A stretch of 64,000 nt of DNA from Filosporella fistucella (Eukaryota; Ascomycota; Leotiomycetes; Helotiales), in assembly GCA_030077755.1 (NCBI GenBank), contig JAQJZZ010000008.1, forward strand, positions 1,364,001-1,428,000, given 5' to 3'. Position 1 is the first letter of the stretch; each line of letters starts with the position of its first letter. A program made the translations under genes and the position numbers. Of the stretch, positions 61,213 to 64,000 are shown piece after piece. Below the pieces are notes generated by a model. That model searched no databases. It was not told the DNA's origin and saw only the letters and a list, made by a program, of their open reading frames with translations.

Positions 61213-62553
61213 ATGGCACCAACGGCAGCGGATTCGAGTGTTAAGCATAGAGCGTGCGATGAGTGTAGTCAGTGCGAACCCAATGGTGCATGGCGGCGAA
61301 TTACTGATCAGACTTTATAGGAACACGTAAACTCGCCTGCTCGAAAGATCCTGATGGATGTGTTCGCTGCAAACGGGAGAATATCGTCTGCCACTATTCC
61401 GAGCAGAAGCAGATGGGACGACCCAGGAAGCGTCAATTTATCGAGACAACAAATGAGCCACCCGTTACGACTCAAGGTCAGCCCAATGAAAGCCTCTCAG
61501 CACCCTTGAATGAAAATCTGGATATTTACAGTGATGGGCCAGCCGAGCCTTACTTTACAAACGGTCTACCTACTTGGGGACTTCCATCAGAGATTATCAG
61601 ACCAGTCCCAATAACGGGGACGGCAGCAGAAGGCGTGACCAAATGGCACTTTGGAGACAAAGACGTGATAGGAGGGCCAAACATCAACTACGGACATATT
61701 GACTTTGGTCCTTCGGATGCTGCCAATTCTTCCCTCGACATCACTCCCCAGCTTTCGGCAGCTTCAAATTCATCCGTGACCGACAGCGAGAACTCTACCC
61801 ATCCAACTCCTCCAGCCGCTGTCGGCCCTTGCAGCTGTCTCGCATCTATGTATTTGAGTCTAGCATCCCTCCAAACTATGCCAGTTGATATTGTTGCGGC
61901 CCTGAGAACCGTCCGAAGTGCGGCTTCATGCGCTGCGCAGAGTATATGGTGTCCACAATGTGGATCTGTAGTACTGGACAATCCCAATCCGCCTATCGAA
62001 TCGTTTCAAAACACCATGTTACTCGGGACTATTCTCCCAATCATCGCTAATGGCTACCAACGACTTCTCAAAATGGTAGATGATGAGACTGATGCAGCCA
62101 CTGCAGCGGGTCGAACGATAACTTTCAGATTCCATGATTATGGGGGCATGTGCGGAAAACAAGAAACGGTAGTGGAAAGCATGGTGTGTCTCGAGAAAGA
62201 AATGTTCTTCAATGCAGTGGAAATGCCACCAATACAGTGGAGAACAACTGTGAGAGCACTTCTTCGTGTTGATGTCTATGGCCATGAGCAACTTGGCTTT
62301 AAGCATAAAGGTCTTAAGGATTTAGTCGCTGAAATGGAGCAGCGCCAGAGAGGTCGCCAGTATGTTCAAAATTCCTTGGTATCCGTTTTATATTAATTTC
62401 GTGTGTAGCGAATTAATCGATGCCCATGTGGCGGCTGGGACAATGGAACACGGGGTATTTGGCCAAAGACTCTGCCTTGGAGAGCAAACCCACGGCTGCC
62501 TTCAAATCTTAAAGATGGCGAAACACGCAATTGACAGTCTAGTCATTGCCTAG
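61213..62553 (+). CDS. Zn2Cys6 transcription factor, AflR-like
   Basis: Fungal-type regulator. Exons 61213-61267, 61321-62359, 62409-62553; 412 aa. The binuclear zinc cluster is split by the first intron: ACDEC joins to RTRKLACSKDPDGCVRCKRE..IVC, giving C-x2-C-x6-C-x6-C-x2-C-x6-C. A basic AT-hook-like GRPRKRQ follows. The C-terminal half has the layout of the AflR/aflatoxin-regulatory family (Cys-containing SMYLSLASL, TMPVDIVAALRTVRSAA...IWCPQCGSVV, later HVAAGTMEHGVFG). The local genes are housekeeping, so a biosynthetic cluster is not evident in the window. The second intron restores the ELIDAHV segment. Targets unknown. Confidence 0.87.
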
Positions 62554-62650: not shown

Positions 62651-64000
62651 TTATACCCGCAGGCTTTCTAAGCTGCTTACTACATATTCCATGAGCTGGA
62701 AAGCTTCTTTACCGCTCAAGTCGTCTTTGGCAAAAATGCAACGTACGACGACATCTCTATACAATCGTCCTGTCTTGCTGCTCAAGTTTGGAATCAAATT
62801 CTGTACAATCACCTTATCCCTGAATCTTTCGGCTGAGTAATGGGGCCTATGGAAAGCCTGGAGTCCTTTCCAAAGCCCGATCTCCAACAATATGAGTCCC
62901 AGACTATATATATCAAAGCTTTTACAATATGGCTGCTTTGACATTCCGTCCAGAGACTTTGGATGTCTGTGCAAATCAGTCACAGCTGTATTCTTCGAGG
63001 CTACAGACATTTCCCCGACACCGTCTGGTCGGGATACATCAAAACCTAAAAGAAATGGTGATGAGATATCTGGTATACTGGCAGATATTGCTGTGGCCCG
63101 AGTCGCCGAGGCCGAAAAGGCGGACGGAAAGAATAGCACATTCGCACTACAAAGAGACTTGTGCAACCAGTCAAGTGAGTGCAAGGACCAAAGGGCTATG
63201 GCTAAAGTATGTGCCAATTTAAAGCGATCACCAAGGTCTGGTGTGCGAAGATCATTGCTGACAATGAGAGTATTGAGATTTGACGAGGATGCCCTGGGAC
63301 TCTTGTATATCAAGCCATACCGGCTTGTTATACTATCATCAGTATACCCAAGACAATCTAGGGTATGAAGGTCCGGGTGTCTATTTGAGGCACTATGAAT
63401 CATCCTCGCGAGGTCATCAATTCGTCGGATATGGTTTAATCGGCCATCCAGATCTTCTTTATCGTATTCTATCCACTCAATAACGATGTCCTCAGGATTG
63501 GAGGTTGATGGGTTCAAAAATGCTCCATGGCTCCGTTTTGGATCTGTATCTGACAGAGAAAGTTGTGTCCGTTGAACTTTCAGGGCAAAAGTTGGTCGGA
63601 ATTTTGATGTCGGGTTGGCGTCCAAGTTTATTCGTAGTTGCTTTAGGCTGGCAGAAGCATTTAATTGACGATATACGCCTTCCGATGCCGTTTCAAGCAG
63701 GCTCAATTTCCCTAAATCTCTCTGTGCATTTTGCAATAACTCGTTTGTCCACGCTCTGTTAATGGTAGCCAGCCGTGACGGTGGAAACAATTGCTCGAGG
63801 CCATCATTGTAATCCTTTAAATCTTTCAATAAGACTGTGAACTTCTCTTTGTCGGCAATCACCCACTTCGCCCTTAGCTGTAATTCGGACCTCAATCTCC
63901 CAGCCACACTTGGACTTCGTGACCTCTTCTGAAAACTCCCCTTTTCATGCACGGGACTTATAGGCTCCTCTCTGAGCCCGTATTTGTCTTGTAACTTATT
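62651..64000 (-). CDS. HeLo-like helical bundle plus kinase-like pseudokinase domain (5' end off window)
   Basis: Reads from the right edge to a stop at 62651; about 449 codons are present. The N-terminal visible part (KLQDKYGLREEP, VADKEKF-like helices, FTVLLKDLKDYNDGLEQLFPP) resembles the end of a fungal HeLo/prion-inhibition domain. Then comes a kinase-like fold with a hinge (GLIYKSP), a helix and catalytic-loop analogue LDWLHKSLCSANVLFF, and a C-lobe with YCKSFDIYSLGLILLEIGLW. Catalytic residues are missing: HRD reads HKS, the loop Lys is Cys, DFG reads GFD, and no clear VAIK lysine is seen. Fungal proteins of this layout are linked to incompatibility and regulated cell death; the role here is inferred. 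Confidence 0.8.
   Translation of the reverse strand, partial: NKLQDKYGLREEPISPVHEKGSFQKRSRSPSVAGRLRSELQLRAKWVIADKEKFTVLLKDLKDYNDGLEQLFPPSRLATINRAWTNELLQNAQRDLGKLSLLETASEGVYRQLNASASLKQLRINLDANPTSKFRPTFALKVQRTQLSLSDTDPKRSHGAFLNPSTSNPEDIVIEWIEYDKEDLDGRLNHIRRIDDLARMIHSASNRHPDLHTLDCLGYTDDSITSRYGLIYKSPRASSSNLNTLIVSNDLRTPDLGDRFKLAHTLAIALWSLHSLDWLHKSLCSANVLFFPSAFSASATRATAISASIPDISSPFLLGFDVSRPDGVGEMSVASKNTAVTDLHRHPKSLDGMSKQPYCKSFDIYSLGLILLEIGLWKGLQAFHRPHYSAERFRDKVIVQNLIPNLSSKTGRLYRDVVVRCIFAKDDLSGKEAFQLMEYVVSSLESLRV

What the first reader, a model, noticed from the sequence alone, without database searches (positions are those of the whole stretch)
62651..64000. HeLo-type bundle fused to a pseudokinase: MLKL-like architecture
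The N-terminal helices match the style of the HeLo membrane-permeabilising domain and the C-terminal domain is a kinase fold with every catalytic signature broken (HKS for HRD, GFD for DFG, no VAIK Lys). This is the arrangement of the animal necroptosis executor MLKL (four-helix bundle plus pseudokinase). Related fungal proteins exist, so the class may not be new, but ligand, trigger and function are largely undescribed.
Basis: partly seen in the sequence, partly recalled or inferred. Interest (0 to 1): 0.75.

Follow-up and report, generated by a model that had tools for sequence, protein, structure and literature searches.

The report
Fungal MLKL-like HeLo pseudokinase gene
A filamentous fungus carries a conserved protein that joins a cell-killing type of helical domain to a dead kinase, as in the animal necroptosis protein MLKL, and sister genes in the same genome sit beside apparently active kinases, hinting at a kinase-switched cell-death pathway.

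Summary

The class is not new: a 2025 review gives it one sentence (PMC12881547). My searches found no account of the genomic wiring. Of nine unfused pseudokinase genes of this type here, window gene included, six lie within 5 kb of a kinase match (binomial 1.1e-7); five of those neighbours are kinase-ankyrin loci with intact motifs. The four best non-self relatives of one such kinase are the other four. Equal contig lengths suggest that one pair, seen through its partner's ankyrin part, recurs on three metagenomic contigs. The window gene's nearest kinase match is 138 kb away. I read it as a latent membrane executor released by a kinase in trans; killing and phosphorylation are inferred.

The parts
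62651..64000 (-). Single-ORF gene for a 552-residue HeLo-pseudokinase protein; the 5' end (residues 1-103, ATG at 64309) lies beyond the window
   Evidence: homologue P0003 has the same length, 552 aa
63695..64000 (-). In-window part of the HeLo domain (whole domain is residues 12-205, i.e. 64276..63695)
   Evidence: PF14479 E 4.8e-45; HET-s 2wvo E 3.6e-7 and 4.9e-11 by profile
62654..63592 (-). Pseudokinase domain, residues 240-552 (Pfam DUF7580 match at residues 285-532)
63473..63478 (-). Glu278-Trp279 in strand beta3, about where the VAIK lysine would be (position placed by eye)
   Evidence: E 67 of 67, W 67 of 67 rows of A1
63155..63163 (-). His-Lys-Ser (383-385) in place of HRD
   Evidence: H and K 67 of 67; third position S 57, N 9, T 1, never D
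63038..63046 (-). Gly-Phe-Asp (422-424) in place of DFG
   Evidence: G and F 67 of 67, D 66 of 67
62957..63037 (-). Activation-segment region, residues 425-451, with conserved Ser426 and Ser435 (candidate phosphosites, inferred)
   Evidence: Ser426 67 of 67; position 435 Ser 66 and Thr 1 of 67

Best explanation
The gene encodes a latent membrane-targeting cell-death executor built like MLKL: a HeLo bundle held in check by a catalytically dead kinase domain. An active kinase, encoded elsewhere for this copy but next door for most sister copies, would phosphorylate or bind the pseudokinase, free the HeLo bundle, and let its hydrophobic first helix enter the plasma membrane. Shown here: the domain architecture, the kinase fold, conserved loss of catalytic residues, broad conservation, and adjacency of sister genes to active-looking kinases. 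Inferred: membrane insertion, killing, inhibition by the pseudokinase, and phosphorylation as the switch.
For: HeLo homology to HET-s. Kinase fold. Catalytic Lys and both Asp missing in 67 of 67 aligned sequences. Invariant or near-invariant serines in the activation segment. Hydrophobic N-terminal stretch, best 19-residue Kyte-Doolittle mean 1.99, against 2.05 for a HeLo-only gene of the same genome and 1.43 and 1.34 for two paired copies. Six of nine pseudokinase genes of this type within 5 kb of a kinase match, expectation 3.4% each, against 0 of 7 control loci with HeLo alone or DUF7580 alone (nearest 56 kb). Five partner kinases keep HxD, Lys, Asn, DFG and APE (A3). Reciprocal association: the four best non-self matches to one partner kinase are the other four kinase-ankyrin partners. 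Kinase-DUF7580 fusion in this genome (DUF7580 26.3 bits, just under the cut-off 27) and in three protein clusters elsewhere (P0140, P0142, P0145). Equal contig lengths and similar identities suggest that the pair is kept on three metagenomic contigs.
Against: The window gene itself has no kinase neighbour (nearest Pkinase match 138 kb), so its control by a kinase rests on its relatives. No toxicity, membrane or phosphorylation data exist for it here. Its broad, strong conservation is unlike fast-evolving allorecognition genes (recalled) and could mean a non-lethal role. The first 14 residues of the model are below pLDDT 50. In the contig comparison the query was the ankyrin part of the partner; no kinase domain was seen on those contigs, and 8 of 11 close hits matched no contig length.
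Confidence: 0.6

Rival explanations
1. A conserved housekeeping membrane or stress-signalling scaffold that kept the HeLo-pseudokinase layout but no longer kills; only the fast-changing, kinase-paired copies are executors.
For: The window gene has 465 homologues at E <= 0.001, the listed ones at 53-80% identity, whereas the paired C6 copy has 25 (14 at 44-65%, the rest 38% or less); both searches scored only about 8000 candidates. The window gene is unpaired.
Against: The HeLo N-terminal stretch remains hydrophobic, and the HeLo match is stronger than in the paired copies (155.4 bits, against 100.4 or less for the four copies that one search found of the five kinase-ankyrin pairs; only a HeLo-only gene scores higher, at 177.4).
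Confidence: 0.25
2. A pseudokinase decoy: the domain is bait for foreign or pathogen effectors that modify kinases, and HeLo reports the modification, as plant ZAR1 does with pseudokinases (recalled).
For: Conserved, non-catalytic kinase fold joined to an execution domain.
Against: High conservation rather than diversification; adjacency of sisters to kinases suits a kinase substrate better.
Confidence: 0.08
3. Chance resemblance: helices and a diverged domain misread as HeLo and kinase.
For: Pkinase itself is below its Pfam cut-off.
Confidence: 0.01

Closest known systems
Animal MLKL (necroptosis executor)
   Same: N-terminal helical domain plus C-terminal pseudokinase; full-length MLKL 4btf is Foldseek rank 2 for the first, weaker model, and MLKL pseudokinase 6vc0 matches by profile E 3.7e-3. 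Kinship of HeLo with the MLKL 4HB is taken from PMC12881547 (section 18).
   Different: The bundle is HeLo proper and matches HET-s by sequence; no match to the MLKL bundle was listed; no kinase is adjacent; killing and phosphorylation untested.
HET-S/HET-s of Podospora anserina
   Same: HeLo domain, PDB 2wvo matched over residues 11-221.
   Different: HET-S carries a C-terminal amyloid region and is activated by amyloid templating from NWD2 (PMC10197012 passages); this protein ends in a pseudokinase and no such region was listed by Pfam.
Fungal HELL/HeLo proteins with kinase or pseudokinase domains
   Different: That text names HELL, not HeLo proper, and in the passages seen gives no partner kinases, no sequence features and no experiment on this class.
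Plant MLKL proteins (e.g. Pm13 of Aegilops longissima)
   Different: Plant lineage; not compared by sequence here.

Membership tests
HeLo domain (PF14479) | Match above the curated cut-off over the domain | tested here: met
   154.3 bits against 23.2, positions 4-205 of 205
DUF7580 (PF24476) | Match above the curated cut-off | tested here: met
   39.4 bits against 27
Protein kinase fold | Two-lobed kinase fold | tested here: met
Pseudokinase | Loss of VAIK Lys, HRD Asp and DFG Asp | tested here: met
   Absent in 67 of 67 rows of A1; the Lys position was placed by eye; ATP binding not tested
MLKL | N-terminal 4HB bundle | tested here: inconclusive
   HeLo is homologous to HET-s; relation of HeLo to 4HB is taken from PMC12881547. 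VIA rows tested only residues 237-552
MLKL | C-terminal pseudokinase related to the MLKL pseudokinase | tested here: inconclusive
   6vc0 E 3.7e-3 by profile, Foldseek rank 15 for rat MLKL, but IRE1 and LIMK1 score better by profile and MER, RAF and JAK1 lead by fold
MLKL | Phosphorylation by an upstream RIPK3-type kinase | not testable with these tools
   Only candidate serines and kinase neighbours of sister genes
MLKL | Membrane permeabilisation and cell death | not testable with these tools
   Needs expression
HET-S | C-terminal amyloid prion-forming region | tested here: not met
   The C-terminus is a kinase fold; Pfam listed no such region at E <= 1
NLR-controlled HeLo effector pair | Adjacent NLR gene | tested here: not met
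   Upstream neighbour is SURF4; the downstream ORF 61308..62396 has no Pfam match at E <= 0.01, then BOP1. The rest of the window was not scanned for NLRs

The most novel reading that the evidence does not exclude
Fungi hold a phosphorylation-switched necroptosis wiring independent of NLRs and amyloids: a two-gene cassette of an active kinase with ankyrin repeats as sensor and a HeLo-pseudokinase as executor, a RIPK3-MLKL logic in a second kingdom. The window gene is a widely conserved stand-alone executor of that system.
Probability: 0.4. Interest if true: 0.85.

Novelty: new variant of a known kind. Interest (0 to 1): 0.6.

Why it matters
The HeLo effector best described in the papers seen, HET-S, is switched by amyloid templating from an NLR (PMC10197012 passages; PMC5485727 passages), and PMC12881547 (section 18) asks for work on how far necroptosis is shared with fungi. 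A widely conserved HeLo-pseudokinase, with sister genes paired with active-looking kinases, makes one answer testable: does a fungal kinase release a pseudokinase-held HeLo bundle as RIPK3 releases MLKL?

Tried and rejected
PUK1 (PMC4817773, passages): a Fusarium pseudokinase gene brought up by word search. 'HeLo' does not occur in its main text and no link was shown, so it was dropped.

PADLOC matches of two partner kinases are to defence-system models such as mad6 and PD-T4-6 and, I judge, say only that they are kinases; P0001 had none.

Amyloid motif: none listed by Pfam. No amyloid-specific predictor was run.

First structure model (pLDDT 67.5) was superseded by the second, from a larger alignment (pLDDT 82.3). 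HET-s does not appear in the 50 rows shown of any of the four fold searches, where kinases fill the lists; the HeLo call rests on sequence.

Tree of pseudokinase domains: paired and solo copies are not resolved (6 of 10 inner branches open, long branches), so whether solo is ancestral is unknown. The C6:1.82 Mb copy was not in it.

Literature: eight searches of the open-licence PMC library; passages of ten papers were seen (PMC12881547, PMC10197012, PMC4817773, PMC9815663, PMC12258605, PMC4835503, PMC5148876, PMC5485727, PMC5870968, PMC12025182), plus one whole section of PMC12881547. None of what I saw describes HeLo-pseudokinase/kinase gene pairs. 'DUF7580' is in no held paper. Daskalov et al. 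2016 (PMC4790977) is not held and may show the architecture. Subscription papers and preprints were not searched.

Full report
What is there. The window is part of a 45.8 Mb genome of unnamed origin in 19 contigs, at C7:1364001-1428000. The closest named homologue is of Stipitochalara longipes, 79%. The minus-strand frame of the finding runs off the window and was completed from the contig: ATG at window position 64309, stop at 62651, 552 residues in one ORF. The upstream neighbour is a SURF4 gene. Downstream lies an ORF with a Zn2Cys6-like cysteine pattern (my reading; Pfam gave nothing), then a BOP1 gene.

N-terminus. Pfam HeLo matches residues 12-205 at E 4.8e-45. A single-sequence search of the PDB finds HET-s 2wvo, 2wvn and 2wvq at 3.6e-7, 8.1e-5 and 0.001; the profile of 67 aligned sequences finds 2wvo at 4.9e-11. 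The first helix region is hydrophobic, but the model is not confident for residues 1-14.

Catalysis. Alignment A1 has 67 rows: 66 of the 120 listed homologues plus the window ORF. Beta3 reads Glu-Trp in 67 of 67 (the column of the lost Lys was placed by eye). HRD is His-Lys-(Ser 57, Asn 9, Thr 1). DFG is Gly-Phe in 67 of 67, followed by Asp in 66. Asp466, Tyr468, Ser469 and Ser426 are 67 of 67; the Asn after the HRD region is 66 of 67; position 435 is Ser in 66 and Thr in 1. The degenerate motifs are thus largely conserved in their own right, as expected of a domain kept for binding or switching rather than for catalysis (inference).

Distribution. The homologue search returned 465 proteins at E <= 0.001 among the 7996 candidates scored; the best 120 are listed, at 53-80% identity. 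The named ones are Leotiomycetes and Sordariomycetes by my reading of the genus names. The kinase-paired C6 copy gave 25 among 7997. The window gene looks like the widely conserved member and the C6 copy a patchy one.

Sister genes. Searching the genome with HeLo (11 matches), DUF7580 (11 matches) and the protein itself (13 matches) gave ten clear loci with a pseudokinase of this type, the window gene included; one further very short match (C4, 42 residues) was not pursued. Reading ORFs around them and scanning them with Pfam showed five HeLo-pseudokinase loci directly beside kinase-ankyrin loci: C3, C14, C16 and C1 divergent, C6 convergent. HeLo and pseudokinase share one ORF at C16 and C6; at C3, C14 and C1 they lie in consecutive ORFs (at C3 split by one in-frame stop), which I take for introns without proof. 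The partner kinase and ankyrin domains also lie in consecutive ORFs. A sixth locus (C6:1.82 Mb; N-terminus helical by eye, no Pfam HeLo or DUF7580 match) lies beside another type of kinase. A seventh (C12) is itself a kinase-DUF7580 fusion without recognised HeLo, beside ORFs with a kinase domain and TPRs; that neighbour kinase reads HGDLN and DFE by eye, so it may be impaired, while the fused kinase reads HYDLK and DFG. The C16 and C6:1.82 Mb pseudokinases have no Pfam DUF7580 match and were assigned by alignment or by match to P0001; the C6:528 kb and C10 copies and the C12 fusion score just under the curated cut-off (25.3, 25.9 and 26.3 against 27).

Is the adjacency chance? Using the 135 Pkinase matches and leaving out the fusion, 6 of 9 loci have a kinase match within 5 kb; the window gene, C10 and C13 are 138, 61 and 70 kb from the nearest. 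Random placement on the 13 contigs whose length I had gives 3.4%, binomial P 1.1e-7. The nine loci are related, so they are not independent draws, and the kinase list is a lower bound (it missed the C12 neighbour), so 'solo' is provisional. Controls by the same list: four HeLo loci without the pseudokinase (C2, C19, C15, C6:1.70 Mb) and three DUF7580 matches without a HeLo match (C16:19 kb, C12:1.65 Mb, C9) are 56 to 391 kb from the nearest Pkinase match, 0 of 7 within 5 kb. The association goes with the HeLo-pseudokinase combination.

Reverse test. The C3 partner kinase, searched against the genome, hits besides itself, in this order, C16, C6, C14 and C1 (the other four kinase-ankyrin partners), then the C12 neighbour, and only then two others at C9 and C2 (7 non-self matches at E <= 1e-5). 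The C6 partner finds C3 and C16 only. The five partners keep HxD, the Lys and Asn after it, DFG and APE, and a VAIK-type Lys is visible by eye in each translation. Pseudokinase and partner profiles are related at hhalign probability 96.3, which any two kinase domains may show.

Other species. No fungal contig collection was open to search, so I compared the 'longest contig' lengths in two homologue searches: the C6 HeLo-pseudokinase and the 850-aa ankyrin ORF of its partner. Of 11 close ankyrin-part homologues (P0147-P0157, 40-60% identity) three share an exact contig length with a HeLo-pseudokinase homologue (of 14, P0122-P0135): 49163, 4959 and 34650 bases, with matching identities (59/61, 53/55, 42/45%). 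On 4959 bases the two must lie side by side, if the equal length means the same contig. No kinase domain is listed for these hits, so the kinase itself was not seen there. The other eight show no match; the table gives one contig per cluster, so that is neither counter-evidence nor support. Three clusters elsewhere are kinase-DUF7580 fusions (P0140, P0142, P0145).

Mechanism. The best reading is a latent HeLo executor held by a pseudokinase and released by a kinase. For the window gene the kinase would act in trans. Rivals are a non-lethal conserved scaffold and a decoy. The literature seen places HET-S under amyloid and NLR control, notes two- and three-gene clusters for fungal death pathways, and gives the kinase-linked class one sentence.

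Verdict. The finding is real and correctly interpreted as architecture. As a protein it is a new member of a noted class; the kinase-linked family setting makes it a new variant worth testing.

Noticed in passing
L026 3724-9569; L027 1661-7541; L028 440-6982; L029 2762-8767; L039 4216-10000: Five HeLo-pseudokinase loci directly beside kinase-ankyrin loci with intact catalytic motifs, at C3, C14, C16, C6 and C1 of the same genome.
   Followed up: yes
L030 3495-5813 (-) and L042 1175-2458 (+): A kinase and a DUF7580 pseudokinase fused in one ORF, beside ORFs with a kinase domain (HGDLN, DFE by eye) and TPRs; similar fusions occur in P0140, P0142 and P0145.
   Followed up: partly
L041 1503-3134 (-) and 3773-4938 (+): A further pseudokinase gene with a helical N-terminus (by eye) that Pfam does not recognise, divergent from a kinase of another type.
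   Followed up: partly
L026 4726-4728: In-frame stop between the HeLo and pseudokinase parts of the C3 copy; intron or lesion, unresolved.
   Followed up: no
L034 4793-8549: HeLo ORF followed by an ORF with NTPase-like and ankyrin-like sequence, by eye a NACHT-ankyrin receptor; not scanned with Pfam.
   Followed up: no
L040 3443-7234: HeLo-DUF7580 ORF (C13) followed on the same strand by a 639-aa ORF without Pfam match.
   Followed up: no
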